A DNA stretch of 64,000 nucleotides from Narthecium ossifragum (Eukaryota; Streptophyta; Magnoliopsida; Dioscoreales; Nartheciaceae), in contig OY986966.1 in NCBI GenBank assembly GCA_963920575.1, positions 24,643,717 through 24,707,716 of the forward strand, in the 5' to 3' direction. Position numbers and translations under genes: made by a program. Below are positions 12,751-59,820 of the stretch, one piece after another. Each line of letters begins with the position of its first letter. The first letter of the stretch is position 1. The notes beneath the pieces are model-generated. The model did no database searches and had not been told where the DNA came from. It saw only the letters and a program-made list of their open reading frames with translations.

Positions 12751-15028
12751 TGTCGCGCCCCGACCCGCGTAGGCCCAACCGGGCCGGGCGACGCGAACCG
12801 GAACCTAACCTACTGCGGAAATTTTGGCGATGTTTCCCTCTAATCGTAATGGTTACCCTAATGATCACAACCACCCTGTGTTATACAACAATTATAAAGC
12901 TCAACACACAAAGCTGGAATATAGTACAAATCCTCAAACAGGGAATGTTATACAAAATCGCTCCTGTAGGAGACTATCTAACCAAAGATGTACACAGACA
13001 GATCACAGCTCCTCAAGCTCCGCCAGACGCCGCCACGTCACTGAACACCTGCCCGGTAGGGGCTACCGAAGAAGAGCTAGCGCCAGCACCTGCAAAAACG
13101 CAGCCCGGGTAGGAGTGAGCACTGAGCTCAGCAGGGACACTACACTACGACACTCACAAGGAAGGGAACACAACAATGTCGCCCCGAGCTAAGCCTAGGT
13201 GTATCACAGGGGTCCCATAACCCCACCGAATACCCCTGAGTGTCCCAGTCGTGGTCTTCCAGCGGACTGGTCACACACTGGGTCACACTCAGTCAGACAG
13301 GAAACGACACTGCCAACTCACGACAGGATCCTGGGCACTGTCGGCGGGTAGCACCGCTGGGTAGTCACACCTGCCACCCAAGAGTTCTAGAAGGATTGGG
13401 TACCGGCTACACCAGGACTTGGCTCGAGGCCGACACGACCTCTAAACCTCAAACACAAATGTATTCAAGTCCAACTAACCCTATCATCGAAAAGACTGAA
13501 TACTACAAATCGAGTCCTGGACCAAGCTACCCGCACGGTCCTAAGAGATAGATCCGGGCTACCCGGAAGCCCCGGATCGGCAACGCCCTAAACAGATGCA
13601 ACTAGTGCACAACACAATGCATGCTATGAACATGCGCAGAAATAGATACAAGTAAGCATGCAACAGGATGTGATGATATATCAAAGAAGGTCTGGGCACG
13701 GCACCCTGCCGGCCCGGGTGGTGAACAGGTAAAGTAAGGTCTAAGGAACTGCTGCAGTGGTACCACCACCAGCTGCCAGCAGTTCACCACAACACCTGCA
13801 CCGGGAAGCAGCCCCGCAACCAACAGCTTACAGATATAGCAGATAAGGCCCTCGGCGCACGCCGGCATGCAAGGCTATGGAAAGCTGTAGGGCTACCCGC
13901 CCGTTTATTCTAAACATCCCGGGAGTCATCACTCTCCCGGTTCACCACTGCCCTATTATAGGGCTAACATGCTTAATCGTATATACAAGGTATAAAGCGA
14001 TAAGTAAAACCGGCATACCAAACCCCTTGGGCAAAAGCCATGAAAAACCCTCTCTGCTACTAAAGGATCGATCCTCACCAAGGGAAGGATCGATCATTTA
14101 TGTAACAGTGAGCTTCCCTCGCTGTCGAGGCAAGGAAGATCGATCTTTCTTGAGACAGAGGGCACCCTTCGCGTCGCACCAATAATGATCGATCCTTCCT
14201 CCCAGAAAGATCGATTTTCTTCGCGACGAAGGGTAACCATGCCACCCAAGAACCAGGATCGATCTTTTCCAAACAAAAGATCGATCCTTCATCGTGCGGG
14301 GCATGACCAACCAGAAGGATCGATCCTTCCTCAAGAAGGATCAATCCCGATGGGTTCTTCGGCGTGCTTCCGGCGAGGAATACCGCCGGAAGACACATCC
14401 AAATACGACGAAACTTTGGGATCTGGTAGATCTAGATCACACGAGTCCAAAACCGGTAAAATCACTGAAAACCAACAGCTATATAAACAGATCTAAGCAA
14501 AAGAAGACAAAACAAACCGGAAAACTCAAAACCCCGAAGAGAGATATCGGTAGGATCCCTACCGGAGCAAGAGCAGCTTAGATCCAAGCAGCTAGGCCTT
14601 GGATCGTCCTCAGAAGCCTTCAAAAATCGCGAGATCTGAGCTCAAATCGCCGGATTTCAAAAGGGATTCAAGGAAGAAAGTCTCGTCTGCTTTATAGGCA
14701 AACGAACCGACTTATGAAGGATCGATCCTTCCCCAAGGGAGGATCGATCTCTCCATGACGATCACACTTGACTTTCTGGCACAAGAGGATCGATCTCTTA
14801 GCTAGAGAGATCGATCCTTTTTGTGTTGAAAGCTAAACTTAGGCAAGAATTCAAGCCTAAGTCCGGATCTTTCGATCCCGGGTTCCACTAACCATTCTAA
14901 GCAAACATTACCACAAACATGGTCAGTGTGTACAAGCGCGAGTGTGGAACTAGCCGACAAGGTGCAATTTACCAAATTGCCCTTGCGGTCCACAGCGAGC
15001 CACAGGAGGAGAGGGACGGGTCCTCACA
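12751..15028 (+). mobile_element. Solo LTR, 2,278 bp, TSD GAAAT
   Basis: It starts TGTCGCGCCCCGACCC and ends GGGTCCTCACA, with the identical 5-bp repeat GAAAT on both sides (12746-12750 and 15029-15033). This is the signature of LTR-LTR recombination that removed the interior. A likely TATA box, TATATAAA, lies at about 14480. Seven exact GATCGATC palindromes lie within 420 bp upstream of it and four more follow at 14716-14815. No coding frame is credible. It is an inverted relative of 1-1779. Confidence 0.88.
14060..14345. repeat. Cluster of GATCGATC palindromes upstream of LTR TATA box
   Basis: Seven exact GATCGATC sites, several extended to AAGGATCGATCCTT, plus two one-mismatch sites are packed in about 280 bp just upstream of the putative TATA box at 14480. 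The same cluster occurs in the inverted LTR at about 200-530. Regularly repeated palindromes in a U3 region suggest binding sites for a dimeric factor; that role is inferred. Confidence 0.6.
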
Positions 15029-39468: not shown

Positions 39469-41417
39469 TTACAACAAAACCTCAGTATAAACATATAGTT
39501 GCCATTGACGAAATACAGATGTGCGCAAATCAATCCCAGCAAATTTCACCGATTGGCCTTGAGATTTATTTATTGTCATGGCATATGCCAGTCGAATCGA
39601 AAATTGACGTCTTGTCACCTGAAAAGGCAAACATTCTGAAGTTGATGGAGTCAATGATATCATTGGAATGAATACTAAATTGCCAGATTTATCTCCATTG
39701 AAAATTAGAGCCTCAATTATACGCGAAGCACATCTCACAACCATCAATCGTGTGCCATTGCAAAGTCCATCCTTCGGCGCTATATTCCTCAACAACATTA
39801 CTGGACAACCAACTTTCAACTCTAACTTAAACGGCTGTAATCCAACATGATTCAATGAGTTTAAATACTCATTTGGATAGTGATTAGTTATGGTCGAATC
39901 AAGTTCATCTTGTGAAATTTTGTGAGCTGCTAAATAAGTAATTGTCTCTCCAGGAAAAGCATTTAATGTATATGTATTCATAGAAGTCACGCCATCATTA
40001 CATGCAGAAAGAATTGTGCGTTCAATCAAGAAAGTTGGAGTCACTGTACCCACAACATCGAGTTGTGGATAAATAGTAAAAAACAGCTCATGCAAATTTT
40101 GACATCTACGTGTTGTTGATGAAAGCTCTACAGAATCTTCTTGATTTATCCCAATATACGAATTAAAAATAAATAACCCCAAATCAATGAAATAATATAT
40201 AATATTCAAGCAACATGACTTGAGGATTTCTGCGATTGCGAACATCTAACGTAGAATCCGGGTCATAAATGTAAAGTTGAGAGTACATTACTTCACACCT
40301 TGGTTTTGGTATCAATGATCCTATTTGATGGTGCAATTCACCATGGATAATGAATGTTGCAGGACCTTTTTTAGTAAATACTCTTGAATCCAAAGTAGCA
40401 CCGAGACTTGTAAAAGCATTAGACGCATTGTACTCTCGAGTGTAACGACGAAAGGATTTTGACCGATCATCATTTCCGTCATATAAAACCTTAAGTGCTG
40501 GAGGTGGTGTAATAAGCAACGATAATCGAATTTTTCCTTAAGAACAACAAGTTCCAAAAAGAGCACTCACTAAAGAGGACATTGTCAGTTTTTCATACAT
40601 CTAATGTAAAGCTGAACAATACAGACATAAAACATCCATCCGACCAAGAAAATCTCATCCAAGATCTATGTATGCCCAAGGATGAATCTCTGCATTCAGA
40701 GCTACACCTTTTGATTCATCATCATCATATGATTCAATCAGTTGTTCTATTTCAGTTGGCCTACAAATATAAAATTTATTTTCATCAATAAAAGACTATA
40801 TGAAGAATTTTATTTATTTATCATAAATTAATAATAAATTACCGATTATTTTTTGCAGATAAAGATTCGACTTGCACCGTTATGCATTCGTTTAGATTTG
40901 AAGGATTTATCGTCACTGAAGTTATTCCACGTATAGAATAATCCACCTGATTAGGTGTTTGTCGAATGCCAGTGGACGATGTCCCAGAGGCTCGGATATT
41001 GATTGCTTGCTTGAGTGCAGGTTCAGAAGGTCCAACACATCCTCATAATTTCTCATGTTCTCGCAATGCACGTTGTGCCAAATGCCTATTCGAGATACTA
41101 GTAGACGATGTCCCCGAGACTTGTACAACCATTGCTCGCTTTGGCGCATGTTTTAGAAAATCCAACACATCCTTCTAATTTTTCACGTTCTCGTCGTGCA
41201 TGTTGAGCTAATGCAGCTTTTGATGGCTTATTATTATTAATAATACAAAAATTCATAATAAATTTAGCATGTAAGCCAAAAATTTTTTGAGTAAAATGTG
41301 ACATAAAATAGATCAAATTAAATAAATATTGTAGTAAAAGATAAAAAAACCAACATTCATATGCAAATGACTTACTGTGCCAATGATAGTAAGTCCATTA
41401 CTATTATCATCAGCCAT
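39469..41417 (-). pseudogene. Helitron Rep-helicase gene, internally deleted
   Basis: Pieces in order on the minus strand: a short N terminus (MADDNSNG) near 41417; a basic stretch (SKAALAQHARREREKLEG) that occurs again in diverged form near 41080; a Helitron N-domain segment ([44 protein letters not shown]) at about 40500-40230; then the helicase C-terminal part ([35 protein letters not shown]) at about 39840-39500. The Rep HUH nuclease centre and the helicase Walker motifs are missing, so N- and C-terminal parts are joined across a large internal deletion. Several frame changes are present. It would have driven rolling-circle transposition. Confidence 0.7.
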
Positions 41418-42235: not shown

Positions 42236-42331
42236 AGCAAAACGAAAGTAAAGGCAAACCTTTTCATGAAATCACTTTCAGGGACTTCAAAACCCAAAAA
42301 GGCCATTTCCTATGCTTGATTTGAGAACATC
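42236..42331 (+). repeat. Block A, second copy, middle fragment
   Basis: It matches 26230-26325 (AAAGGCAAACCTTTTCATGA, then GCTTGATTTGAGAACAT) and stops exactly at the 5' LTR of the Ty3/gypsy element. Confidence 0.75.
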
Positions 42332-43591
42332 TGTTAGCCAAAATAATGGCTAACTCATAAATGACGGACACGTAAGCAGAAAGCAATTACTAAATGGACG
42401 ATAACTACATAATCTTATCGATCAGATGAAACCTATCGACCAAATGAACGATAGAGTCTATCGACCAAATGGACGATAAAATATCGACCAAATGAAACGA
42501 TGGAATCTATCGACCAAAATGGACGATAGAATTTTAACCAAATGGACGATATCGTCCATATGGCACCATCATTTAAAGGACTATGGACGATCATCGCCCA
42601 AAAGTCACAATTGGACATGTTACTCAATTTTATCGTCCAAAAGCAATTAACACATGTGCCAAATATGGTTAAAAAACACATGCAGGTATGACGTGGACAA
42701 GAAACGATAAGTAAGCCAGCGTAATCATGACGTATGCAATGAACGAGAATCGACCACGTGTACTCTCCAAACCAGACACAGACGTGGGAGAAGCTGTTAC
42801 GGAGCAGTTCGCACACGATCTCCTCTTTCCATGCCATCAACCCTCAAGGCGGGAGCAGTTATTCAGTTACTTAGTATAAATAGCTTCTCTTCTCCACTGT
42901 AAACCCCCCCGACAACCTGTAACCTGCTCTTAAGCATGGCTTTCGTTTCTTTTGTACCTGTAAGTTGATTAATAAAGCTTTCAGTTTGATTAATGGCGTC
43001 TTTTATTGCTTTCTTAGCATAATCTCAATGATGTAGTCGTTTTAATCGTCTTCTCCTTTTTTCTTTATGTTTTGTAGTTCTAGATTAATGGATTTCTTTC
43101 CGTTTCAGTTTTCTGTCCGTTTCTTTTCCATAGTTTAATTAAGTTAAATTAGTTTACTGTTTACACTTTCTTTTCTTTATGATCATAGGAGTATTTTAAG
43201 ATTAATTTAGGTTTTATCAGTCTTCTTTTACGCTTTCTGTTATTTAAGCTTTCTTTACTGTTTTCCATTAGAATAAGTTACTGCTTTCTTAGATTAAGTT
43301 AATTTAATAGGTTTAATTGCGTTTTCTAGATTCAATAATTTAAGTTGATCTTTATCCTTTATTTAATTCCGTAATCTTAGACAATTTAAAGCTTTTCTTA
43401 GGTTAATTTAAGTTAATCTTGATAATTAGATTATTTAATTAGGTCTAATCTAGATTTCCGTATTACTTGACATCTCTGGTTCGTTAATTCGAAAGAGCAG
43501 AACTCAACTACAATCATCTGATACTTAAGTGTGGAATAGGATTTTGACTTTGACTATTTGACCGGTCAACGGTTAGATTTCCTCTCTAACA
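42332..43591 (+). repeat. 5' LTR (TGTTAG...TAACA)
   Basis: 1,260 bp. It begins TGTTAGCC and ends CTCTCTAACA. U3 contains repeated CGACCAAATG(G)ACGATA units and the 16-bp palindrome TGGACGATATCGTCCA (42543-42558). TATAAATAG lies at 42875-42883 and AATAAA at about 42970. The remainder (R/U5) is T-rich. Confidence 0.93.
42875..42883 (+). promoter_or_regulatory. LTR TATA box
   Basis: TATAAATAG follows the repeat-rich U3 and precedes a CT-rich start region by about 10 bp. The same box is at 56274-56282 in the 3' LTR. Confidence 0.7.
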
Positions 43592-43594
43592 TTT

Positions 43595-43613
43595 TTTGGC
43601 ACGCCCGGTGGGA
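43595..43613 (+). promoter_or_regulatory. Primer binding site candidate
   Basis: TTGGCACGCCCGGTGGGAC lies a few bases after the 5' LTR. It begins with TGG, the complement of the tRNA CCA end. I cannot name the tRNA with confidence. Confidence 0.6.
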
Positions 43614-43614
43614 C

Positions 43615-46600
43615 ATGTGTCAAGTCTTTATGGAAGTCGGTCAAGTTGGACCAGACGGAATGGTCATCACTAGGACTGGTTTAGACACTAATAGTGGTAG
43701 TGGAAATGCCGCCGATCACGGCGATGGCCAACAAAGTCCAATTGTGGTCGAGGAAGAGCCTGTTCTTTTTCCATCTCTCGACCAACCACATGTTTCTCCA
43801 CCTGTTCCCCCACCACACATAGAATACCGAGATAGGGTGGTTTATCGCTCTGTAGAGCGAGGGAACTCATCGGCCAGAGGTGGCCTAGATCCAGGAAACA
43901 TCACGTCAAATACAGCCCAAAATATGGTCGATGAAGCTTTACATGCTAACAACCAGCAAATGACAAGTCATATCGCCACTGCTCTAAGGCCTTTTATTGA
44001 CACTATGCAGACTTTTATAAACGCAACTTTGTCTCAGGCAAACCCTGGATCAAATGTTGCTAGGCCTACCATGTCAGCAATCCCTATCGGCCAAAACCCC
44101 ACCCAAAACAATCGTCCATTTCAGCCCAATACGGTCATGGGACCTGGTGGTAATAACGGTTTTGTTCTTTTACAAAATCCAATGCATAGCCAAAACCGTA
44201 TCGGCCAAAATAGCCAAGTTGGCCAAACTAGTACAACCCATCATCGGCCATCGATGAATAATGATAATAATCCAAGACCAAATTTAATCGGTCAAACATC
44301 TGGGTTGTTTCCATCGCCAACACAAATACCTCATAATAATGAGGTGTTAACTCCTGAAGCAATACCAAACAATGGTGTCCCTCCTCTTCAAGGAGTTCAA
44401 GGTGGTGTTGTGCCTCCTGCACAGGGAGCGCCTAATAATGGAATTCCTTTAGGTCAGGGTATACCAGTAGGTGGAATGCCTTTGGTTATGGGCGAGAACA
44501 TTCTTCAAAACATTCCCCAGAACGTTCCTCCAAATGGCCAGAACTTTGTGTACCCAAACAATGGCCAAAACATGATTTACCCAAACAACGGCCAGAATAT
44601 TGTTTACCCAAACAATGGCCAACACATCGCTTTCCTAAATAATGGCCAAAATATCGGCCAAAATAATAACTTGGATGCTCAAGGCCAAGGGTTTCCACAG
44701 AATAACTATGGGCAACTAGGTGGTCCAGTTAATCGCCCAGTAGGGGATAGTTTTTATAATCAAAGAATGGCCGATGGTCCGCGCATAGGTGATGTTCCTA
44801 ATCAAAATAACTATCGACCATATGAGGCACCACCGTATTATGCTCGACCAAATGAGCAGTATGACCAAGTGTACAACAACCCTCTTTACAATCAGGCCGA
44901 TGCTCTACGTGAACAAGTCGCTGGAATTTTACAAGAGCAAATAGGTTTAGGACGACCAGCTACTCGTCCAACATATAGGAAACCTTATCCTGATTGGGTT
45001 GACTAAATGTACCCTCTCCCTAGGACCTATAAAGTTCCAGAGTTTACTATGTTCTCTGGGGTAGATGAGATATCGACCATTGAACACATAGGGAAGTTCT
45101 CCATGCAATGTGGAGAAGTGAACGATTTTGTCAAACTTAGACTATTCCCTAATTCTTTATCTGGGGTAGATTATTCATGGTTCATCAAATTATCACCCAA
45201 TTCTATTCAAAATTGGCAGCAAATGAAACATGCGTTCCATTCTCAATTTTATAAATCAGAACCAGAAATAACAATGGCCGATCTGGCTCAACTTAGACAG
45301 CGGCCAGATGAGAATGCTGAGTCATTCTTACAACGGTTTAAAAGAGCGAGAAGTAAGTGCTTTATTCCCTTACCTGAAAGGGAATTTGTAAAAATCGCTC
45401 AAAGTGGATTAGCCTTTGAACTTAAAAAGAAGTTCCAAGATAGGGATTTTATTGACCTATTTCAACTGCAGACTAGCGCTATACGTTACGAACAGTTGTT
45501 GAGAGAAGAAGATCAGATGAAATCATCTTCCAAGGGAACTTATTATAGAGATACTAACTATGAAATAAACCAAGTTAGCGAAGTCGATGAAGAAAACTAT
45601 AATATGAATGATGTTTGTTTGGCCGAGCTCCTTAAGGGCAAACTTTATATATGTAAAGCTCTCGCCAAACTTGAGCGAGAACTTAAGGGTAAAGAAGTAC
45701 TTAGAGACGGTAAACGTCCAATGCGAAAGTTTTCTTTTGATGTTTCAAATGCTGATCAAATCTTTGATCAATTACTCAAAGATAAACAAGTTAAATTGAA
45801 AGATGGACATGCTATGCCAAGCCTTGATGAGATCAAGGACAAAAGATATTGTAAGTGGCATAATGCTTGGTCGCATCACACTAACCAATGTTTGGCTTTC
45901 CGTAATGTTTTGCAGGATGCGATTGATTCCGGAAGGATTGGTTTCCCAGCCATGCACATGGGAGTTGACGCAAATCCATTCCCCAAAGCCGCTCCAGTGG
46001 GAATGGTGTTGACAGATGTGGCAAACTTCAAATTGCCAAAGTTCAAGATTGTCATTGACGAGACTGAGGACGACAGTCGTCCAGATGTGTTCACAAGACT
46101 TAGCCAAGATAAAGGGAAGGAACCTGCCATTCCACATGTCTGCCCCAGATGTCATTGGGATCTCAGTCGCCCGATGACACCTTTCTCCGGGACCAAGTTT
46201 CTCCATTTACAGTCAAGGCAGTGGAACCGAGTTAAGCCTCATGTGTTCCCAAAAAGCTTTATGCCTCAGCCTTACAAGCCAGAGCGATGGTACAACTACA
46301 ACTGCTATACTCGTCGGTCAATTCCTGTGGAGGAGATGACAAGGACTCAGTACCGCCGCTACCAGAAGAAGTATGGCCAGATGATGAAGGCCAAACAAGC
46401 CCAGGAAGCTAACCCAAGTCAGGATGAGGAGGCTGAAGATATTGAAGAGGATGTTACTGTCTCTACTGCGACAGAGTCTTCAAAGAGCAAGTTCCATCGT
46501 CCAAACAAGGATTGTGACGATGAGGCTGGAGCAAACCAGGTGATTAAATTCGGAAGACTCCCGTCAGTTATCGTGAACAACTACATCCTGCCAAGCCGCC

Positions 46601-46662
46601 TTGGACAACCATGTCCAACTGAAAGTGACTTAGACATATCAGATATGGCCGATGATGGATAG
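43615..46662 (+). pseudogene. gag of the Tat element
   Basis: The first ATG after the PBS is at 43615. The N-terminal 460 residues are Asn/Gln/Pro-rich, with a tandem NNGQN(I/M)VYP-type repeat near 44520-44680. An in-frame TAA at 45004-45006 precedes the capsid part (FSGVDEISTIEHIGKF, LAQLRQRPDENAESFLQRF), then YCKWHNAWSHHTNQC, a CxxH...HxxxxC cluster in the place of a zinc knuckle. A TAG ends the frame at 46660-46662. Gag builds the particle around genomic RNA. The two parts are in the same frame, so the TAA is either a mutation or a read-through site; mutation is more likely given the other stops. Confidence 0.82.
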
Positions 46663-48126
46663 TCAGCCACACTGGTCGAGGAAGATGGAGATGTATCGGC
46701 TACCTTGGTCGATGAAATGGAAAATTCACCGTAAGTGAACTTAGTGCTCGACGATGGAGATGAATACGTCGAGGTTGAAGAAAAAATCGACGTTACTGAA
46801 GAAGCTTGGAGGAGGAATATATCTACAGAACAGTTGTTAAGACAGTTGTATGAAGAAGGAAATCCAGCAGTTGGACCAGGTGGCCAGCCAAGTGGCCGAT
46901 ATGACTACCTGCGAGTGTATGGGGACGTGAAGGTGAAGCGTCTCGTTAAGAAGACAGAGGTTGTCGCTCAGATCGTTCCATCTACATCGACCACGATTGT
47001 TCCAACAGGCTGGGGTGATGAAGAACAAGAACCCATGGTCGAGGATGTTGAATGGGTGGAAATAGAAGTACCCATCAAAGTCAATGAGGAAGCAGCAAGG
47101 AGAAATATTTCTCAAAAGAAGCTGCTAATGGATCTCTACAAGGCAGGTAATCCAGCTATCAGTACTCAGGGCCAACCAAGTGGAAAGTATGATTACTTGG
47201 TTTGTTATGGCGATCCCGTTGTGAAAAAATGGGTTCCCAAGTCCGATGTTGCCAAATACGCTCCGCCGGCAGAGGAAGTACCAATCGTCCCAACTGGTTG
47301 GGACATGGAAGAAACAGTGACACAGCAGGAACAACACCAAAAGGATCAACAGTGGCCATCATGGGATGGTCAAAAGAACCCAGAGGTCGTCCAGGTTGCA
47401 GCTAAAGCAAAGGGGAAAGCAGTTACCCATCAACCTCAGTCATCGGCTAGTTCGTGCAAAGAAGGTCTTCAAGATCAAGACAAGGCAGTGTTTGAGCGGC
47501 CCCCAGAGGCAATGACTCGCCATTTACGGCCTTTACACATCAAGGCCGATATTAATGGAATCCCAATAAGCAGAGTTCTGATCGATACCGGCGCTGCAGT
47601 AAATGTCATACCAGCTAAGATGATGAAGAAGCTGCGCAAGACTGACAATGATCTTATCCCCACGGATATCACGCTCACGGGATTCAGTAGAGTTCCAGCC
47701 CCAGCAAAAGGAATTCTCCCCTTGGACATAAAAGTTGGAAGTGTCACAAGAACGACAGCGTTCTTTGTCATGGACTCATCGACCAGTTATAACATTCTAC
47801 TTGGACGAGATTGGAACCATGCTAGTCAATGCGTTCCCTCTTCTCTTCATCAATGTCTTTTCCTATGGAATGACAAGGGAAACGTAGAGTCGGTTATGGT
47901 CGATAATATGCCGTACAGCATGGACACCCATGCCTTGGAGGCATCCTTCTACGATTACAATTATGGTCCTTTGCAGTTCCTTCAAATCGACGACAGTCTA
48001 AAGGTCGTCTCTGAAAATGGAGTCATGCTAAGGGAGCGCGTGGCGGAGTTATTCGATCCAGCAAGACCAACGTCAGTGGTCTTTGTGCCTAAAGCTGGCC
48101 GATCATCGGCCACAAGGCTGCAATGA
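46663..48126 (+). pseudogene. Protease region of gag-pol
   Basis: It is in frame with gag, after TAG (46660) and TAA (46732-46734). Two copies of an acidic module occur at 46750-46930 and 47050-47210 (QLLRQLYEEGNPA / KLLMDLYKAGNPA with QPSG(R/K)YDYL). The retropepsin follows: SRVLIDTGAAVNVIP with the active-site DTG at about 47585, then YNILLGRDWNHA. The frame ends TGA at 48124-48126, overlapping the ATGATG where the RT frame opens one base back. Confidence 0.78.
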
Positions 48127-49805
48127 TGGGTTCACAATCCGAGAAGAATCAGGCCGCTGTAACGGCCTTAAAAGCCAAACTAATGGCTTATCAAGTGGAA
48201 GCGTTCGCTGCACAAGAAGAGAACGACCTAGGTTGTCTAAAAGAGATCCCCAAAGAAGACGAGGAAGAAGTCCCCTACGGCAAACATGGAAACATGCAAG
48301 CTCAAGACCCTTTGGAAGAAATCAACCTTGGTGATGGCGAGGAGCATCGTCCAACCTTCATCAGCAAACTTATCGACCAAAAGGTAAGGAACAAACTCAT
48401 TGCTATTTTGCGTTCATATAAATATTGCTTTGCATGGGATTATAAAGAGATGCCTGGTTTAGATAGGAATATTGTAGAGCATGAGCTTCCTACTCGACCA
48501 AATTTCAAACCATATAAGCAGGCGCCTAGACGCTTCGCTCCAAACATAATCCCAGAAGTAAAGAAAGAAATTGAACGATTATTAAATGCTAACTTTATTA
48601 GAACAGCCAGGTTTGTAGAGTGGCTTTCTAATATAGTACCAGTTAAGAAGAAAAATGGCAAACTAAGAGTTTGTATAGACTTTAGAAATTTAAACTTGGC
48701 TACTCCCAAGGATGAGTATCCTATGCTATCGGTCGATAATTTAGTTGATTCCACCGCTGGGCACGAGATATACTCATTTATGGATGGGTATTCTGGATAT
48801 AACCAAATTTATATCGCCGATAATGATGTTCATAAAACGGCATTTAGATGTCCAAGATCACTTGGAAGTTATGAATGGGTTGTTATGCCCTTTGGTCTAA
48901 AAAACGCTGGTGCAACTTATCAGCGAGCGATGAATTTGATTTTTCATGATATGATTGTCCACTTTGTTGAAGTTTATGTTGATGGCATAGTAGTGAAGTC
49001 ACCGATTATGGCCGATCAATTTTCACAATTGATCAAAACTTTTGAGCGAATGAGAGAATATAATTTAAAGTTAAATCCCTTGAAATGTGCCTTCGGAGTA
49101 CAGGCAGGGAATTTTCTTGGTTTTCTCGTCCATCAGCGAGGAATTGAACTTGACCAAAACAAAGCAAAGTCTATAATTGAGGCCAGTCCTCCAAAGACTA
49201 AGAAAGAACTGCAAAAGTTTCTTGGTCAAGTGAATTTTTTAAGAAGGTTTATTGCTAACTGTGCAGGTAAAACTCAAGAGTTTTCATAGCTCTTAAGATT
49301 AAAGAGTGAAGACGATTTCGTCTGGGAAGAGCGACATCAACAAGCCTTTGAACGCTTGAAGCAATGTTTATCAACGCCACCAGTTATGGCGCCGCCAAGG
49401 TTGGAACAACCCATGAAGCTCTACATCGCTGCAGCAGACCGATCAATAGGCGGTCTCTTAGCGCAAGATGGCAAAGATGGATTTGAGAGAGCAGTGTATT
49501 ATCTAAGTAGACAGTTGTTACCTTATGAACAGAAGTACTCGGCCATAGAAAAGTTGTGCTTGGCCTTATATTTTATGTGTACCAAGCTTAGAGCTTATTT
49601 AAAACATGTAACAGTCTACTTGATATCTAAGTTCAATGTATTAAAGTTCTTGTTTTCTCGACCAATTTTGCACCAGCGTATTGGTTATTGGGTTTTAACT
49701 TTGGCTGAGTTTGATATTCAATTTGTATCTCAAAAGGCTGTTAAAGGCCAAGCATTGGCCGATTTTTTAGCTGACTATCCTTGTGTAGATATACCAAAGG
49801 AGTAA
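48123..49805 (+). pseudogene. Reverse transcriptase and first RNase H
   Basis: RT motifs are clear: NIVPVKKKNGKLRVCIDFRN, MDGYSGYNQIYIA, FRCPRSLGSYEWVVMPFGLK and then VEVYVDGIVVKS. The catalytic box, normally YVDD, is YVDG because the codon at about 48993-48995 is GGC rather than GAC. A TAG at 49287-49289 precedes the connection and RNase H part (KLYIAAADRSIGGLLAQDG, YYLSRQLLPYEQKYSAIEKL). A TAA closes at 49803-49805. The usual Asp in the RNase H start (D of AADRS) is kept. The product copies element RNA into cDNA. Confidence 0.88.
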
Positions 49806-49844
49806 GAGCGAGAGATTAATAACGTAGCGCTCACCCCCTGGACG

Positions 49845-51581
49845 ATGTACTTTGATGGTTCTAAAACTATCAGTGGGGCTGGCCTTGGGATCACGATCCT
49901 ATCGCCCATTGGACGCAAATATAAATTTGCGTATACTCTATCGCAATTATGTACTAACAATCAGGCTGAATATGAAGCTCTAATCATCGGCCTAGAAATT
50001 TTGTTAGACTTAGGAGTGTCCAATGTACAAATCAAAGGTGATTCACAATTAGTGATAAATCATATACTTGGACATTATAAATGCCAAAGCGATATTTTAA
50101 TTCCATTTCATCAAATCGCTCTAATGTTGTTAAATCGTTTTAACGATTTTGAACTATTATTCGTTCCAAGATTACAGAACGATGAAGCTAATACCCTCGC
50201 CCAAATAGCATCAGGCTACAAAGTGTTAAAACACTTGGGGGGCACGAACGATTTCCGTTCTGGCATAATTCAATCTGCACTAGAGCGATTTCATCGGCCA
50301 AACGAGGTAAATCACATCGATAGCCAACCGGATTGGCGGACCCCAATCGTCGATTTTTTGAAGGACCCATCGCTTAAGGTCGATAGAAAAATCCGTCTTA
50401 AAGCGATACATTATTTCCTACAAAACGACGTTTTATATAAACGTCGACCAGATGGCGTCTTATTGCGCTGTTTGCACCCTGATGAGGCTAAATTGACGAT
50501 GGCCGAGATACATAATGGCGTTTGTGGAGCACATCAGTCTGGCATCAAAATGCGCTGGCTAATAATGCGCAGTGGCTTTTATTGGCCACGCATGGGGGAG
50601 GAGTGTGCTATATATGCCAAAGGATGTGAAGCATGCCAAAGACATGGTCCATTACAACGAGCTCCAGCAAGTGAATTATCGATCATTGTCAAACCTTGGC
50701 CATTCAGATGTTGGGCGATAGACATTATAGGGAAAATTTAACCTCCATCATCCATGTTGCACAAGTTTGTAATTGTGGCGACAGATTACTTTACTAAATG
50801 GGTGGAAGCGATTCCATTAAAAAATATTTCTGATGATCAAGTGATAAATTTCATTTGGAAAAACATCATATGTAGATTTGGCATTCCACAAACAATTGTG
50901 TCCGATCAAGGGACAATGTTTGTAAGTTCTAGGGTAAAGAATTTTTTGGCGGAGTATAAAATTAATATGGCCAATTCTACACCCTACTATGCCCAGTCTA
51001 ATGGACAAGCTGAAGCGTCCAATAAAACCATCAAGTCAATCATAAGAAAGATGATGGACGATAACCCAAGGCAATGGCATGAAGGTTTACTAAGAGCGTT
51101 ATGGGCACATAGAACTACACCTAAGTCTAGTACTAAGGTTACGCATTACCAATTGGTCTATGGTCAAGAAGCGGTGCTACCGGCTGAGATAAATGTTCTA
51201 TCGCCCAGAGTTATGGAACAAGATCGCTCAACTAGTGAAGAATATGAAGACACATTAATGTATAATCTTTTAAAGCTAGATGAGCAACGAGCTATTGCCT
51301 TAGAAAATATAGAGGCACAAAAATTAAAAGTGGCCGCTATCTACAATAAAAGGGTGGTATCAAAAGAGTTTCAAGAAGGAGATCTAGTTTGGAAAACGAT
51401 CCTACCTATAGATCGTAATGATCCCAAATATGGAAAGTGGTCGCCCAACTGGGAAGGACCATACTTGGTCGATCAAGTATTTCCAAATGGATCATATGAA
51501 CTGAGGAATATTGACGGTGGTTTGCATCGATCAATGATAAATGGTCGATACATTAAGAAATACTACCCATCAATGGAATAA
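49845..51581 (+). pseudogene. Second RNase H (Tat type) and integrase
   Basis: The second RNase H has MYFDGSKTISGAGLG, NQAEYEALIIGLEILL, KGDSQLVINH and NDEANTLAQIASG, so its D-E-D-D set is present. Integrase follows: an HHCC zinc module (H...GAHQSGIKM...CEACQRHG), then a DDE core with AIDIIGK, TIVSDQGTMF and GQAEASNKTI. A TAA at 50739-50741, just after the first Asp, breaks it. A C-terminal GPYLV...GSYELRNIDG segment closes at 51581. The last 19 bp overlap the antisense gene. The extra RNase H is diagnostic of the Tat lineage. Confidence 0.85.
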
Positions 51582-54500
51582 AAGGCATAGAAGAAAAACG
51601 TCCTTAGAATATGGACGATAGCAATTAACAAAATACGTCCTTGAGATTTGGACGAGAACAATTGACAAATATTGTTCATTACAAAATTGTCGGCCAAAAG
51701 CTTTACATTACAAGACTTTATCGCCCATGACAGACCAAAAAAAAAAAAAAAAAAGAGAGCAATTTTTTCACGGACTGCCCTAAAGCGTTGCTTGTTCTTC
51801 ACAAGCTCACCCTTCAACTCGATTTGGCGATCTTTTGAGGAATTCGCCTCCAAAGCGATGTACTCTTGCATCATTTGGTTGCCCTCCTCAGCCAGTTGAG
51901 TAGTCTCGCGAAGGGGATAGTTCTTTTGAGTGGTGCACTGGGCGATTTTTTCCTCTAACTCTTTCATCTGGTTTTGGTAACCAAGGATCTCTGATTCTTT
52001 TTCGCCAATATCGTCAGTGTTTTTCTGAAGCTGCTTAACACGATTACTGATGATGTCTTTGATATGGGTACGCCGCTCCTGACGTTCCCCAATAAGAATG
52101 ATGTCGTTCATCAAGTTGTTTCTCTCAGCAGTCAGACTTTCAATCTTGATCTTAATATTGTGAATATCGTCCATGTCACTGGATGAAAACCCTAAGACTG
52201 TAGGATCCACAGAGAGAAAGGGTGTTATGGCTTTGTCCAGTGCTTCACTATCTAATCTGGTGAAGTCCTCTTTAGGAAACTTGTCCAAAACTACAAGACA
52301 TTGAGATAACGCTCGTCTGAATTCTTCATGTTGACTCCCTTGTGCAACTTCAGGGTCAACAACCGTTTTCTTGGCAGTCACTATAGCATGCCAAGAATCC
52401 GAGAAGGTCTGGACAATATTCTTTAATTGGGCGAGATCACCCTGAAAAGAACAAGCATTTAATAAGAGTTAACACTAAATGGTCGAGAGAATTAAATTGA
52501 ACGATAAAATACCTGTGAAGAGGTAGAACTGGATGGATGAATAGTCACCCTTGTTTGAACATCAGTAGTTGATGTTGGAACATGAGAAGTTGGCGATATA
52601 ATATCGGCCATTACTGGTTCAGGGACACCGCGACGAGGTTTTGGAGATGCAAGTAGTGCCTCTGTTGATGAGACAACTGGAGAAGCAACGATGCCCGGCT
52701 TAACAGTTTTGGCCGAGAGATCTTCAACTTGAGTTGGAGCAGCTGGGATATTAGGAGAAGCTGATACAGAAGATAAACTCGCATTACCAAGGTCTCGTAA
52801 AAAACTATACGGACCATGAACGAGTTTTCTACCAGTTAATGACAAACCTGGTTTAGATGGAGTCGTATTCAAGACGTCAAAGATATTGTTATCGTCTTCA
52901 TCCTCATCTTCTCGACCAGAATTTTGGCCGACAGACTTTTGCTTCCTCGATTCCTAAAAGATTTAAACATTAGAGAATGGTCGATAAATCGATCATCAAT
53001 AAAATAAAAGTTATCTATACTTTTATATTCTTTTGGGCGAGTCGTTTGAATCTACCACCAGAACGTACTTGCGCCTTGGTTTTTGAGGAAGATTTGGCCG
53101 AGGAAGTTGGAGGCACACTCTCATCAGCATGATCAGGAGAAGTTGGAGGATGTTCCTCGATCATTTGTGATGGAGACGTATCAACCACAACCTCAGGAAC
53201 TTTGGTTGTAGGTCGAGAAGGAGACAAAGAATATAAAGAGCTCGGAGTACTAGAGCCCACTTCTACATCAGCCCTGAAGACGCAAAAGTTTAAGTATCAA
53301 GAGGAAAAGGCAAACATAACAAGAAAGAAAATGTTATGATACTCACGTGACATGAGTAGATTGACTGCTTCGATGACTGCTGCTGGGAGAATCAACCTTT
53401 TCCTCTGCAATTGGCCGAGAAGATGATTGATCTTTTTGAGAGGAAGATGGTTGAGGTTGGACGATAGTTTTTCCTTTACTACGTCTCTTTGTAAGCGGTT
53501 CATCATCCTCATCGTCAGAATCTACCGATCGAGGAGATGATTTATTTTTTGGAGAAGAAGATGGTTGAGGTTGGACAACGGTTTTTCCTTTACCGCGCTT
53601 CTTTTTGGGCGGTGCATCGCCCTCATCGTCTGAACCTATCGATCATATTGTATTAGATGAAAAAAGGATATAAAAAATTCAAGGAGAACGATGAAGATAT
53701 ACCTTTTGTCTTTCGTTTGCTTGGTCGATGACTAGCAGCCACTTGCTTTTGTCTTTTCTTCTCCTTTGGAGGAATGAACTTTTCAAAAACTAGGTCCTTG
53801 TCAGCAAAGAAAAGACGTTCATCAACCATTTCTTTCCAGCTATCAGTGATACTAGCTTCAATCTCGCTAGTAGGCTCAAAAGGTCTAAGCCTAAACCTCT
53901 TGATGAGGAGCAATTCTCTCTTATCCACATAAATTACTCGCTCCATCTCTGAGAAGACACATCGCCCTCTAGCGACGATATTAAAGCTGAAGAATGATGG
54001 CACTGGCCAAGACTGTTTAAGGCCAAATTGGCGAGCATCAAAATTGGGAGCGTAAACTTCTACTCCACATTTATTGTTTGCCTTACCCCAAGCCGTATCA
54101 AAATGAAGGTCACGGGCGATGAGAAAACGAGCCCAAGCTAATATTTTATCATCAGACTCTAAGTCTGAAGAAAGGTCAAGCAAAGGCTTAATGGACGATG
54201 GGTGAGACTCAGGATTGAATGGGCGATAAGAAGAAAAATTGGACAGAGTATAGAAATAATTGAAGGCCTGTCGAAAGGACTTGGGAATAGAAGATGAAGA
54301 AAGATACAAATGGCCTTGAAATCTGGCCGATGATGATGAAGGTGGCATATGAAGATCAGGGAAGTAAGCTCTAAGCCATAGTTGGACGAGCCACAAAGGA
54401 CCAAATCCCGTCAAGCTACCCCCTTCTCTCAACTGCTCAAGGACGAGATACATTCCTCGATAAATGGCCGACAAAATAAAAGGAGCAAGAGAAAAAACTT

Positions 54501-55287
54501 GTTTGCCCGAGGAAAGATCCCGAGCGAGTGGGATATACCCCTTAACAGGTTTTTTGGCAGGAAGGCAAAGGACATATTTACAAAGCCAATAATAAATGAA
54601 CGCTAATCGTTCAAGAGAGTTTAGAGGGCCATCGCTCTCAGACAACTTGGCATAGTAACTAATGAAAAGACTATAGTTCTTATCGGCATCAAAAATGATT
54701 TCTTTCTTGGGTACGTCCATATAGGCCGATACAGAAGTACCAAGTGGAGTTAAACCGGTTAAGAGCGATATGTCCATTATAGTTATGGTGAGCGAATCAA
54801 AAGGGAAGACAAAATTGTTATATTCTGTCGACCAAAAAAGAAGCGACGAAATAAGCAAGTTAGAATCTTGAAGAGGAACCCTGGTGCTCAAGTCCAAGAA
54901 ATCCAAAATACCCGCCTCAGAAAAAATTGACTTAGTCTCAGAATGGCCAATCATCCTATTATACCATTTGACAAACTTGTCATCAACTAATGGCCAGGAG
55001 ATGATAGGGTTTTTTGAAGAAAGAGAAGAGAGATTTAGAGTTCCAGAAAAGTGCAAATCGCCAGAAATAGGAAAAGAATTCACAAGAACAGTCTCCTCGG
55101 AACCAAGGGAAGGAATACTTTCCGGAATGAAGTAAGGACCCAAAGTAAATAATTGAGAGTTAAGGTCACCTTCCCGGACCAGATAACCGCTCCTTATATC
55201 ATCCGACTACATGTTTTCATTGAAATCTCCCACGGCGGACGTCACTTCTTTCTGCACATCATTATCAGCTTTGATTTCACGAATCAT
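51563..55287 (-). CDS. Antisense plant-mobile-domain (PMD) protein, 5 exons, one nonsense codon
   Basis: Exons on the minus strand: 55287-53703, 53635-53347, 53273-53021, 52953-52513 and 52441-51563. All four introns are GT-AG and all phases fit, giving 1,149 codons. Exon 1 carries the plant mobile domain (FTLGPYFIPESIPSLGS, ILDFLDLSTRVPL, DISLLTGLTPLG, RLAFIYYWLCKYV, FGPLWLVQLWLRAYFP) and ends with a basic KRKTK. Exons 2-4 are Ser/Pro-rich with a duplicated KGKT(V/I)VQPQPSSS module and basic KKKRGKGK. Exon 5 has a long heptad-like coiled coil (about 51,850-52,180) and ends in a Phe run made by a T17 tract. PMD proteins MAIN and MAIL1 act in silencing and cell maintenance; transposon-borne relatives are known. 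One TAG (55209-55207, codon 27) interrupts it. It overlaps the integrase 3' end by 19 bp. It is nuclear by inference. Confidence 0.8.
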
Positions 55288-55309
55288 GATGACGAATGAG
55301 TGTAGACGC

Positions 55310-55495
55310 CGGAGTTAAGAAGAAAAGAACAAAGAACCGCCGCGGAGGTAGGTAAATAGCAGTAAAACCCTAGGAGACTTGAAGAAGAAGACAGGCGAAG
55401 AAAGTTAAGAAGAAAAGAACAAAGAACCGCCGCGGAGGTAGGTAAAGAGCAGTAAAACCCTAGGAGACTTGAAGAAGAAGACACGCGAAGAAAGC
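55310..55495 (-). repeat. Tandem 90-bp repeat in the antisense gene leader
   Basis: The unit with GTTAAGAAGAAAAGAACAAA, GAACCGCCGCGGAGGTAGG and AAAACCCTAGGAGACTTGAA occurs twice (about 55314-55403 and 55404-55493) with only a few changes. Each copy carries AAACCCTA, the plant telo-box. It lies just upstream of the ATG of the antisense gene. Confidence 0.8.
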
Positions 55496-55517
55496 TCTTT
55501 CCTGGCTAAAGGAAGGG

Positions 55518-55535
55518 ATTTAAATAAAGGGTTTT
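55518..55535 (-). promoter_or_regulatory. Possible TATA box of the antisense gene
   Basis: On the minus strand TTTATTTAAATCCC lies about 240 bp upstream of the antisense ATG and about 25-35 bp before the repeated leader. Its position between the 3' LTR and the gene would allow a promoter independent of the LTR. It is a weak match. Confidence 0.35.
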
Positions 55536-55718
55536 TTGTCGTTACTTGCGAGAAGGTTTAAATGTCGGATCCCAAAAGATTTGGATAGAGAAAAGAAACG
55601 GCGCAGCGGTTCATTTTCCTAAACATCCGCCATGATTAAATTTGAAAACCTAGGCGAAACGGTTAAATCCCGGATGATGCGGTCACCTCGTCATTAAAGT
55701 GTCTCCTCGATTACCGCA

Positions 55719-55730
55719 TGGAGGGCAAAA
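55719..55730 (+). promoter_or_regulatory. Polypurine tract before 3' LTR
   Basis: TGGAGGGCAAAA ends directly at the 3' LTR start TGTTAG, the place where plus-strand synthesis is primed. Confidence 0.65.
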
Positions 55731-56990
55731 TGTTAGCCAAAATAATGGCTAACTCATAAATGACGGACACGTAAGCAGAAAGCAATTACTAAATGTACGA
55801 TAACTACATAATCTTATCGACCAGATGAAACCTATCGACCAAATGAACGATAGAGTCTATCGACCAAATGGACGATAAAATATCGACCAAATGAAACGAT
55901 GGAATCTATCGACCAAAATGGACGATAGAATTTTAACCAAATGGACGATATCGTCCATATGGCACCATCATTTAAAGGACTATGGACGATCATCGCCCAA
56001 AAGTCACAATTGGACATGTTACTCAATTTTATCGTCCAAAAGCAATTAACACGTGTGCCAAATATGGTTAAAAAACACATGCAGGTATGACGTGGACAAG
56101 AAACGATAAGTAAGCCAGCGTAATCATGACGTATGCAATGAACGAGAATCGACCACGTGTACTCTCCAAACCAGACACAGAGGTGGGAGAAGCTGTTACG
56201 GAGCAATTCGCACACGATCTCCTCTTTCCATGCCATCAACCCTCAAGGCGGGAGCAGTTATTCAGTTCCTTAGTATAAATAGCTTCTCTTCTCCACTGTA
56301 AACCCCCCCGACAACCTGTAACCTGCTCTTAAGCATGGCTTTCGTTTCTTTTGTACCTGTAAGTTGATTAATAAAGCTTTCAGTTTGATTAATGGCGTCT
56401 TTTATTGCTTTCTTAGCATAATCTCAATGATGTAGTCGTTTTAATCGTCTTCTCCTTTTTTCTTTATGTTTTGTAGTTCTAGATTAATGGATTTCTTTCC
56501 GTTTCAGTTTTCTGTCCGTTTCTTTTCCATAGTTTAATTAAGTTAAATTAGTTTACTGTTTACTGTTTCTTTTCTTTATGATCATAGGAGTATTTTAAGA
56601 TTAATTTAGGTTTTATCAGTCTTCTTTTACGCTTTCTGTTATTTAAGCTTTCTTTACTGTTTTCCATTAGAATAAGTTACTGCTTTCTTAGATTAAGTTA
56701 ATTTAATAGGTTTAATTGCGTTTTCTAGATTCAATAATTTAAGTTGATCTTTATCCTTTATTTAATTCCGTAATCTTAGACAATTTAAAGCTTTTCTTAG
56801 GTTAATTTAAATTAATCTTGATAATTATATTATTTAATTAGGTCTAATCTAGATTTCCGTATTACTTGACATCTCTGGTTTGTTAATTCGAAAGAGCAGA
56901 ACTCAACTACAATCATCTGATACTTAAGTGTGAAATAGGATTTTGACTTTCACTATTTGACCGGTCAATAGTTAGATTTCCTCTCTAACA
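55731..56990 (+). repeat. 3' LTR
   Basis: 1,260 bp, identical in length to the 5' LTR with about 15 substitutions by eye. It contains the same palindrome (55942-55957) and TATAAATAG (56274-56282). Confidence 0.93.
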
Positions 56991-58170
56991 ACATCAAACC
57001 ATTATTTTACCAAAATCTTTATTGGCAGTCCAGATCCATATTTCTTAAATGAAGACATCAGTGACTCTCTAACTGATTTTAAAAGCATAGGTTCTTCCAA
57101 GCAATGTAGTATTAGCTCCGCAGACAGTTTGGCATCGCGTCAGAATAAAGCAGGTCGTACCCTGTGCAAAGTTCCACAGCCAATGACGATGAACCAGTCA
57201 GGTATCATGGACCACACAACCTCCAACTTGGATAAATAATGGTTGCTGTCCTTGTTGATGATAATTTCTTATTCTTTTTTCTCATGCATTATTGTTAATT
57301 AATCGTATTAGTTTATTTATTTGTTTGCCCCGTAGTTTTTACCGTCAACCAAAGTGTGAGCGACTCACCAACTACAACTTAACCTCTCAATTAATCCAAC
57401 CCCAAGGATTGCAGCTAACCACAACTCCCATGTTCTACGTACATTACTGCTGCGCAAGTTGGTAACTCGGTACTTAAAAAAAACCTAAGACTGACAATTT
57501 CATGAGCTCCATCTACCTGTGGGCGTGCTTGACGCGCTAATGCGTCACCTAATGCGTTACTGCTGACTTGGACATCATGCATCAGACTGCCTGCCTGATT
57601 ATCTTGCTGCTACTCAGGGATATTTGTGGGCTTTCAATGCGATTTTGGACTCAATTTTCACATCTGTGCAACGAGATCGGGTTAATGAAGCGGACTACTT
57701 GGCTGCATGGGTTGGGGAAGGCTAGGCGTTGGCATCAAAGCTGGGTCAGCTTTGATCTGGATCTGAAGCTCCGGATGGTTTTCCTTTTTGTTTAAGTAGT
57801 CAGACTTCTATTTCATGTTAGCCCTGTTGGCTGAATTACTCAAAAAAAAAAAAAAAATCAGACTGTCTGCCTGATGTACAAGCTAGGCTCCTTGGCGTGC
57901 CGCGGCACACACGCCGGTGGGAAAGCTTGTCTCTGATTTTGACTCGTTACTATTGGATTTCTTTGAGGTAACTTACGATCAGAAGTGAGCACGGCTTACC
58001 GAGTAAGAGTAAAGATGATGCGTTTGTACCACTAAGACCAAGTCTGAGTAAACGATTGAACTAATTCTAAAATGAAAACGGCATCATTGACAACGAAGAA
58101 GCTACTATGTTTATCTCCAACGACTCTAGATAGGAAGCATCCTCTCAGCCTCCATTCGTCGGAAATTTTA
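56991..58170 (+). repeat. Block A, second copy, last fragment
   Basis: It resumes after the TSD with sequence matching 26440-26610, 26840-27140 and 27739-28080 in order (CAGATCCATATTTCTTAAATG; GACAATTTCATGAGCTC; TACAAGCTAGG(C/G)TCCTTGGCG). It lacks both MITEs found in copy 1, but has gained a poly-A retroposon at 57599-57857. Confidence 0.78.
57599..57857 (+). mobile_element. Poly-A retroposon, 259 bp, with 17-bp TSD
   Basis: It is flanked by TCAGACTGCCTGCCTGA (57582-57598) and TCAGACTGTCTGCCTGA (57858-57874) and ends in A16. The paralogous site at about 27795 has a single copy of the target and no insert. The same insertion is in the third block copy at 60777-61029. The source (a truncated LINE 3' end, SINE or processed transcript) is not recognised; no A/B boxes are evident. 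Confidence 0.78.
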
Positions 58171-59063: not shown

Positions 59064-59820
59064 CAGAATTCTCTTTTCTCTTTTTGGTGATCTAGTCCAC
59101 TACTTTCACGATTACATTCAAGTATTCAGCTTGAACTTGGACTTTTCACGGTTGCATTCCAGAATTCTCTTTTTTCTTTTCTCTTTTTGGTGATCTAATC
59201 CACTACTTTCACGGTTGCATTACAGAATTCTCTTTTCTCTTTTCTCTTTTCTCTTTTTGGTGATCTAGTCCATTACTTTTCACAGTTGCATTCAATTATT
59301 CTCTTTTCACTTTTCTCTTTTTGGTGTTCTAGTCCACTACTTTTCACGATTGCATTCCAGAATTCTCTTTTCTCTTGTCTCTTTTCGAATTTTCTCTTTT
59401 CTCTTTTTTGTGATCTAGTCCACTACTTTTCATGGTTGCATTCTAGAATTCTCTTTTCTCTTTTATCTTTTTGGTGATCTAGTCCATTACTTTCACGGTT
59501 GCATTCCAGAATTCTCTTTTCTCTTTTCTCTTTTCTCTTTTCTCTTTTTGGTGATCTAGTCCATTACTTTTCACGGTTGCATTCAAGTATTCTCTTTTCT
59601 CTTTTCTCTTTTTGGTGATCTAGTTCACTACTTTCACGGTTGCATTCCAGAATTCTCTTTTCTCTTTTCTCTTTTCTCTTTTCTCTTTTTGGTGATCTAG
59701 TCCACTACTTTTCATGGTCGCATTCCAGAATTCTCTTTTCTCTTTTTGGTGATCTAGTCCACTACTTTTCATGGTTGCATTCCAGAATTCTGATTATGAA
59801 GCATGTCTTTTCTCTTTTTA
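59064..59820 (+). repeat. Minisatellite with TTTTTGGTGATCTAGTCC units
   Basis: About ten units of 50-85 bp share GGTGATCTAGTCCACTACTT, CACGGTTGCATTCCAGAATT and a variable (TCTCTTTT)n spacer. Length variation comes mostly from the TCTCTTTT subrepeat. Open frames across it are artefacts of the repeat. Confidence 0.88.

What the first reader, a model, noticed from the sequence alone, without database searches (positions are those of the whole stretch)
51563..55287. A five-exon antisense PMD gene lives inside a Ty3/gypsy element
Seen: on the strand opposite gag-pol, five exons with four GT-AG introns and fully compatible phases give about 1,148 residues with a plant mobile domain, Ser/Pro-rich and basic linkers and a terminal coiled coil. 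Known: the PMD (MAIN/MAIL1 family) occurs in host genes and in some transposons, and antisense ORFs behind integrase are known in some Tat elements. Inference: the element captured a host regulator and keeps it as a cargo gene, possibly against silencing. The combination of PMD, Ser/Pro linker and coiled coil is worth comparing across plants.
Basis: partly seen in the sequence, partly recalled or inferred. Interest (0 to 1): 0.92.

Follow-up and report, generated by a model that had tools for sequence, protein, structure and literature searches.

The report
Spliced antisense gene in plant retrotransposon
A family of plant jumping elements carries, on the strand opposite its replication genes, what looks like its own intron-containing gene, kept intact by selection in the copies that spread, although the copy in this window is broken.

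Summary
Opposite gag-pol of an Ogre/Tat-type Ty3/gypsy element (LTRs 42332-43591, 55731-56990) lies a gene with a plant mobile domain (PF10536, E 1.6e-27), a Ser/Pro-rich basic linker and a long helical region. Its four introns hold in 29 other copies (GT 30/30, AG 29-30/30); indels shared between copies occur in introns (5 in 278 nt), never in coding exons (0 in 3,220 nt). Shared variants sit at third codon positions in the PMD and coil exons (159 of 241; 93 of 134); singletons do not. Pairwise dN/dS is 0.15 and 0.12 there. One copy of a sister family (PMD exon 65% identical) keeps introns 2-4 with the same phases. PMD in Ogre elements and antisense ORFs behind integrase are published; a conserved multi-exon antisense gene was not in what I read. 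Recent capture of a host gene is not supported. Transcription, splicing and any anti-silencing role are untested.

The parts
42332..43591 (+). 5' LTR, 1,260 bp, starts TGTTAG
   Evidence: 1,260 aligned to the 3' LTR, no gaps, 15 differences, JC 0.012
43597..43614 (+). primer binding site complementary to host tRNA-Arg (anticodon TCT)
   Evidence: sequence; complementary tRNA 3' end at three exact places and one with a mismatch in the host genome; the two of these four that were read are tRNA-Arg by ARAGORN
45007..46662 (+). gag ORF
   Evidence: PF03732 E 1.6e-13
46735..48126 (+). protease ORF
   Evidence: PF13650 E 1e-7
48093..49289 (+). reverse transcriptase ORF
   Evidence: PF00078 E 4.6e-25
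49290..50741 (+). RNase H, then a second RNase H (aRH) and the integrase zinc finger; interrupted by in-frame stops in this copy
   Evidence: PF17919 and PF17917, then PF13456 and PF17921; 3 in-frame stops in 48204-51474 in the window, 1 in the one other copy read
50742..51581 (+). integrase core ORF, convergent with the antisense gene
   Evidence: PF00665 E 7.4e-12
55288..55730 (-). leader between the antisense ATG and the 3' LTR; candidate promoter/5'UTR; holds a 90-nt tandem duplication (55313-55492) private to this copy
   Evidence: mean pairwise divergence 0.050 against 0.085 in introns; duplication absent from 29/29 others
53703..55287 (-). exon 1: ATG and PMD; in-frame stop at codon 27 (55209-55207) private to this copy
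   Evidence: no indel in 30 copies; dN/dS 0.151
53636..53702 (-). intron 1 (67 nt), phase 1; not present in the sister-family copy L058
   Evidence: GT 30/30, AG 29/30
53347..53635 (-). exon 2: basic, Ser/Pro-rich linker with a 114-nt tandem repeat (53416-53643)
53274..53346 (-). intron 2 (73 nt), phase 2
   Evidence: GT 30/30, AG 30/30; matching intron and phase in L058
53021..53273 (-). exon 3: linker
   Evidence: 28/30 copies stop-free in the frame used
52954..53020 (-). intron 3 (67 nt), phase 0
   Evidence: GT 30/30, AG 29/30; matching intron and phase in L058
52513..52953 (-). exon 4: linker; 66 nt shorter than in other copies
52442..52512 (-). intron 4 (71 nt), phase 0
   Evidence: GT 30/30, AG 30/30; matching intron and phase in L058
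51755..52441 (-). exon 5: long helical region; native stop lost in this copy
   Evidence: dN/dS 0.117 over 52441-51790; single-sequence AF2 model pLDDT 73, helix of 85 residues; ends compared
   Evidence: 13 shared indels here against 0 in coding exons
55731..56990 (+). 3' LTR, 1,260 bp; 5-bp target duplication ACATC outside the LTR pair (42327-42331 and 56991-56995)

Best explanation
This is a decayed copy of an Ogre/Tat-type Ty3/gypsy element whose family carries an accessory gene on the opposite strand. Borne out by comparison: four small introns, a protein of about 1,116 residues made of PMD, Ser/Pro-rich basic linker and helical coil, and purifying selection on the PMD and coil in the lineage that makes new copies. 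Inferred: the gene has its own promoter in the leader beside the 3' LTR, is spliced, and gives a nuclear protein that self-associates through the coil and helps the element in trans. I think the likeliest job is on chromatin or transcription of the element's own copies, plausibly by mimicking or disturbing the host PMD (MAIN/MAIL1/PP7L) route (about 0.3 for that last step). The antisense position explains how introns persist: the sense RNA that is reverse-transcribed cannot be spliced at them. The confidence given is for the gene and the selection on it, not for the function.
For: GT 30/30, AG 29-30/30, no intron lost in 30 copies. Shared indels 5 in 278 intron nt, 0 in 3,220 coding nt, Fisher p 3e-6; all 13 gap runs in coding exons are private to one copy. 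Shared variants by codon position: exon 1 50/32/159, exon 5 26/15/93; singletons 90/86/97 and 32/27/46. dN/dS over 435 pairs: exon 1 0.151, exons 2-4 0.41-0.61, exon 5 0.117. Sister-family copy L058: four exons, open for 1,069 residues, three introns matching window introns 2-4 with phases 2, 0, 0, a like C-terminus; PMD exon dN 0.27, dS 1.6. Integrase hit downstream on the opposite strand for 65 of 83 listed PMD exons, on the same strand for 0 of 83. Short basic motifs of the K-K/R-x-K/R type: three in the window model, four in L058. PMC7264820 (passages): the antisense protein of maize Grande is nuclear and has its own promoter.
Against: No RNA or protein data, so splicing, promoter and translation are inferred. 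Exons 3 and 4 show no significant codon-position bias (p 0.74, 0.48). Intron 1 is missing in L058 and has no indel among 30 copies, so it is the least certain. A simple motif scan found no TATA-like box in 55288-56100 and no AATAAA-like signal in 51301-51800 on the minus strand. Only 7 of 30 copies are open end to end. L058 is a single copy, and its splice sites were chosen by eye near the matching places. The AF2 model of the PMD failed (pLDDT 32.5) and no PDB relative was found. Heptad pattern of the coil is only modestly above shuffles.
Confidence: 0.85

Rival explanations
1. The protein is an accessory factor for replication rather than for silencing: nuclear import of the integration complex, target choice or RNA handling, like accessory proteins of retroviruses.
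For: Basic motifs and a long helix; PMC7264820 and PMC11963269 (passages) compare antisense proteins of such elements with retroviral accessory proteins; selection on the gene in the active lineage.
Against: The studied host PMD proteins act in gene expression and TE silencing (PMC7156037, passages), which points elsewhere; no direct data either way.
Confidence: 0.35
2. Two separate unspliced antisense ORFs (a PMD protein ending inside intron 1 and a coil protein) rather than one spliced gene.
For: Exon 1 reads about 17 codons into intron 1 before a stop; common-bean elements are listed with one antisense ORF of 211-939 residues each (PMC4093653, passages); intron 1 is absent from L058.
Against: GT/AG kept at four introns; introns 2-4 kept in L058 where the linker is only 32% identical; shared indels in introns but not exons; exons 2-4 open in the spliced frame in 28, 28 and 25 of 30 copies.
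Confidence: 0.08
3. The antisense RNA itself matters (double-stranded RNA, siRNA feedback) and the protein is secondary.
For: Convergent layout with integrase; PMD genes of tea yield phased siRNAs (PMC10673657, passages).
Against: Codon-level constraint in the antisense frame.
Confidence: 0.1
4. Recent capture of a host PMD gene as passive cargo.
For: PMC5418596 (passages) reports capture of host PMDs by MULEs, and PMD-MULEs exist in this genome (L055). L001, a single-exon host-type gene, shares the order PMD, basic linker, coil-like end and lies on the same side of the tree.
Against: Element PMDs not nested in the sampled host or repeated PMDs (15 rows, long branches); two diverged families share the gene; dN/dS far below 1.
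Confidence: 0.06

Closest known systems
Ogre clade of Tat Ty3/gypsy elements with PMD extra ORFs (Neumann et al. 2019, PMC6317226; section 13 and passages read)
   Same: Second RNase H between RH and integrase; PMD (pfam10536) extra ORF, reported in 57% of Ogre elements; tRNA-Arg primer site (stated for Ogre in PMC9289625, passages)
   Different: That survey took unspliced ORFs of at least 250 codons; no introns in the extra ORF are described in what I read
Gypsy-borne PMD-A clades (Ikeda et al. 2017, PMC5418596; passages read)
   Same: PMD encoded by Gypsy elements, apart from PMD-B and PMD-C
   Different: I could not place this gene in their tree; coil, linker, introns and orientation are not described in the passages read
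Antisense ORF2 of 15 common-bean Ty3/gypsy families (Gao et al. 2014, PMC4093653; passages read)
   Same: Between pol and 3' LTR, opposite orientation, some proteins alike, some with an SMC match
   Different: One ORF each; PMD and introns are not mentioned in the passages read
Antisense genes of Grande, RIRE2 and Retand (Vicient and Casacuberta 2020, PMC7264820; Vicient 2025, PMC11963269; abstracts and passages read)
   Same: Antisense gene between pol and 3' LTR, kept in most copies; Grande protein nuclear with its own promoter
   Different: Retand encodes TRP28 (Transposase_28), not PMD; the 2020 review asks that antisense and spliced transcripts be looked for
MAIN / MAIL1 host PMD proteins (Nicolau et al. 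2020, PMC7156037; passages read)
   Same: PMD
   Different: Host genes; the element PMD lies far from L002 and L004, which I call MAIN-like by resemblance and recall

Membership tests
Ty3/gypsy Tat lineage | two RNase H domains | tested here: met
   PF17919/PF17917, then PF13456
Ty3/gypsy LTR element | paired LTRs with target duplication | tested here: met
   ACATC on both sides; LTRs 98.8% identical
Ogre clade | aRH between RH and integrase | tested here: met
   domain order; shared with Retand
Ogre clade | primer site for tRNA-Arg | tested here: met
   complement of host tRNA-Arg 3' end plus CCA
Ogre clade | PMD extra ORF (57% of Ogre) | tested here: met
   PF10536 E 1.6e-27
Ogre clade | intron between gag-protease and RT ORFs | not tested
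   the ORFs overlap in different frames at 48093-48126; splicing there not examined
Ogre clade | RT/RH/INT phylogeny | not tested
   no reference sequences used
Retand clade | antisense TRP28 domain (PF04195) | tested here: not met
   no PF04195 among hits at E <= 0.01 in the three minus-strand ORFs scanned; exons 2 and 3 not scanned
PMD protein (PF10536) | score above curated cut-off 34.9 | tested here: met
   97 bits; L058 77.9 bits
MAIN/MAIL (PMD-C) | falls within PMD-C in a tree | tested here: inconclusive
   outside two MAIN-like loci with strong support, but 15 rows, long branches and no named reference proteins

The most novel reading that the evidence does not exclude
A lineage of Ogre/Tat elements carries a separately promoted, multi-intron antisense gene whose PMD-coil protein disarms the host's PMD-based silencing; the introns survive only because the gene is antisense to the replicating RNA, so splicing also tells messenger from genome.
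Probability: 0.2. Interest if true: 0.85.

Novelty: new variant of a known kind. Interest (0 to 1): 0.58.

Why it matters
Antisense ORFs in Tat elements have been catalogued for years without a known function, mostly as single ORFs. Here one is resolved, by comparison of copies, into a multi-exon gene under selection, with exon borders, native ends and the two domains that selection protects. That gives exact junctions to look for in RNA data and exact domains to test, and warns that ORF-only annotation can split or miss such a protein. It also bears on whether host silencing PMDs came from elements or the reverse.

Tried and rejected
Recent host capture: not favoured, for lack of nesting in a small tree. 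Chance alignment of ORFs: rejected by codon-position and indel patterns. Other PMD copies: the family scan listed 206 matches from 117 scored of 2,033 candidates, and none in 14 control genomes. Of four other groups fetched (L052-L055), none has a Tat pol hit within the stretch; L055 has a MULE transposase and L052 an Ulp1 protease; L054 looks MULE-like by eye; L053 was not resolved. All four carry the label 'mule' in the tree, and 'hostB', 'hostC' and 'MAIN-like' are my labels, from no call. AF2 of the PMD with 6 rows failed (pLDDT 32.5), so no fold search was made. Homologue searches: 5 proteins with the PMD exon, none at E <= 0.001 with the spliced model, 2 with the profile; each scored about 8,000 candidates only. 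PDB sequence search: none at E <= 1. Weak Pfam matches of the coil (CENP-H E 0.0042 and others, all under cut-off) are not used. Heptad contrast of the coil: 5 of 100 and 2 of 100 shuffles reach it. Paper search found no paper.
Full report
What is there. The window holds a Ty3/gypsy element with 1,260-bp LTRs (42332-43591, 55731-56990; 15 differences, JC 0.012) and a 5-bp target duplication ACATC. Gag, protease, RT, RNase H, a second RNase H and integrase follow in order. The primer site is complementary to the 3' end of host tRNA-Arg genes (three exact places and one with a mismatch; the two of them read are tRNA-Arg). These features fit the Ogre clade of the Tat lineage as described in PMC6317226 and PMC9289625. 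RT phylogeny was not tested.

The antisense gene. On the minus strand between integrase and the 3' LTR lies an ORF with PF10536 (97 bits). Three in-frame stops lie in its pol (48204-51474), one in the single other copy read there; pol dN/dS for that pair is 0.07. This copy is broken although its LTRs are only 1.2% apart.

Copies. A DNA search of the host genome (379 Mb, 150 contigs) scored 39 of 701 candidates and gave 30 loci, L021 being the window's own copy. A protein search with exon 1 listed 83 matches, 83 scored of 1,147 candidates. Both are lower bounds, and some of the 83 lie on small contigs with equal scores and may be assembly duplicates. I aligned the window with the other 29 loci; being the best DNA matches, they are a sample of closer relatives.

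Tests of gene structure. GT is kept in 30 of 30 copies at all four introns, AG in 29, 30, 29 and 30; no copy has lost an intron. Indels shared by two or more copies: 0 in 3,220 coding nt; 5 in 278 intron nt (0, 1, 3, 1 by intron), Fisher p 3e-6; 3 in the leader; 13 beyond the native end. Thirteen gap runs in coding exons are each private to one copy. The frame used is stop-free in 14, 28, 28, 25 and 22 of 30 copies for exons 1-5; in the other two frames no copy is stop-free, except 3 of 30 in one frame of exon 2. Seven of 30 copies read from ATG to a stop past codon 1100.

Tests of selection. Shared variants by codon position are 50/32/159 in exon 1 and 26/15/93 in exon 5 (p 3e-26, 5e-18); singletons 90/86/97 and 32/27/46 (p 0.71, 0.06); exon 2 gives 8/11/23 (p 0.011), exons 3 and 4 no significant bias (p 0.74, 0.48). 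This is what one expects of a protein kept by selection in the lineage that makes new copies, with near-neutral decay after insertion. Mean pairwise dN/dS over 435 pairs is 0.151, 0.41, 0.55, 0.61 and 0.117 for exons 1-5: PMD and coil are guarded, the linker is loose. Related copies are not independent, so the p values are guides.

A sister family. L058, one copy of a family whose PMD exon is 65% identical, has integrase remains on the opposite strand and a four-exon gene open for 1,069 residues. Its splice sites were picked by eye at places matching the window. The three introns answer to window introns 2, 3 and 4 and have the same phases (2, 0, 0), and the C-terminus is alike. Intron 1 is absent. 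PMD exon dN 0.27, dS 1.6; linker 32% and coil 44% identical, coil dS saturated (26 of 30 copies used). Searches with L058 list 74 PMD-exon matches (69 scored of 1,218 candidates) and 150 coil matches (150 scored of 509). By position, 65 of 83 window-family PMD exons have an integrase hit downstream on the opposite strand and 0 of 83 one on the same strand within 8 kb; for the sister family (69 places after dropping 5 fragments) 14 and 0; a coil hit downstream on the same strand in 18 of 83 and 44 of 69. Of 139 integrase hits (139 scored of 7,612 candidates), 113 have an antisense coil or PMD exon downstream. The lists are truncated, so misses do not mean absence.

Origin. In a 15-row tree the element PMDs (three rows of one family) join five database PMD proteins (97/98), two named as Prunus avium and Rosa chinensis and three without organism; whether these sit in elements is unknown. 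They lie apart from two MAIN-like loci and four other repeated PMDs of this genome (100/100), while the single-exon gene L001 falls on the element side. Branches are long and the tool warns of false joins. This speaks against a recent capture; the older origin stays open, as PMC5418596 says.

How it may work. Borne out: gene structure and protein-level selection. Inferred: own promoter in the leader (less diverged than the introns, 0.050 against 0.085, but no TATA-like match), splicing, a nuclear protein with coil-based self-association (helix of 85 residues in a single-sequence model, pLDDT 73). The antisense position explains how introns survive reverse transcription of the sense RNA. Function is not shown by any data here; I favour a chromatin or transcription role and give disturbance of the host PMD route about 0.3.

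Known and new. PMD extra ORFs in Ogre, Gypsy-only PMD clades, and antisense ORFs behind integrase are in print. A multi-exon antisense gene with conserved introns was not seen in the passages I read or in the titles and abstract starts listed by searches; several of these listed only the top of their finds (15 of 27, 15 of 359, 25 of 169, 15 of 44 and 15 of 64). Steinbauerova et al. 2011, the first survey, was not read. Hence a new variant of a known kind, as far as I could see.

Noticed in passing
L052-L055; PMD matches: The genome has many other PMD copies; one fetched copy sits beside a MULE transposase (L055) and one beside an Ulp1-type protease (L052), so PMD seems to ride in two unrelated kinds of mobile element here.
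   Followed up: partly
L001:1204-3648: Single-exon PMD gene of 814 residues (335 bits) whose C-terminus looks like a coil by eye after a basic linker, the same order of parts as in the element protein.
   Followed up: partly
window 53416-53643: 114-nt tandem repeat whose first unit (in transcript order) begins inside the end of intron 1, so the intron 1 acceptor lies in a repeat of a coding stretch. With intron 1 absent in L058 this could mark an intron gain.
   Followed up: no
window 39469-40245, minus: Pif1-type helicase fragment (PF21530), perhaps a Helitron remnant.
   Followed up: partly
window 1-1779 and 12751-14542: Long inverted repeat in seven pieces, 86-98% complementary, spanning about 14.5 kb.
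   Followed up: no
window 59106-59812: Array of a 141-nt unit, six copies at 63-94% identity to the reference copy, uneven spacing.
   Followed up: no
window 48093-48126: Protease and RT ORFs overlap in different frames, as if gag-pol needs frameshifting or splicing.
   Followed up: no
host genome G000: 379 Mb with 13 large contigs; PMC8127270 (passages) gives 13 pseudo-chromosomes, ~333 Mb and abundant TatV elements for common fig. A fig relative is possible, not tested.
   Followed up: no
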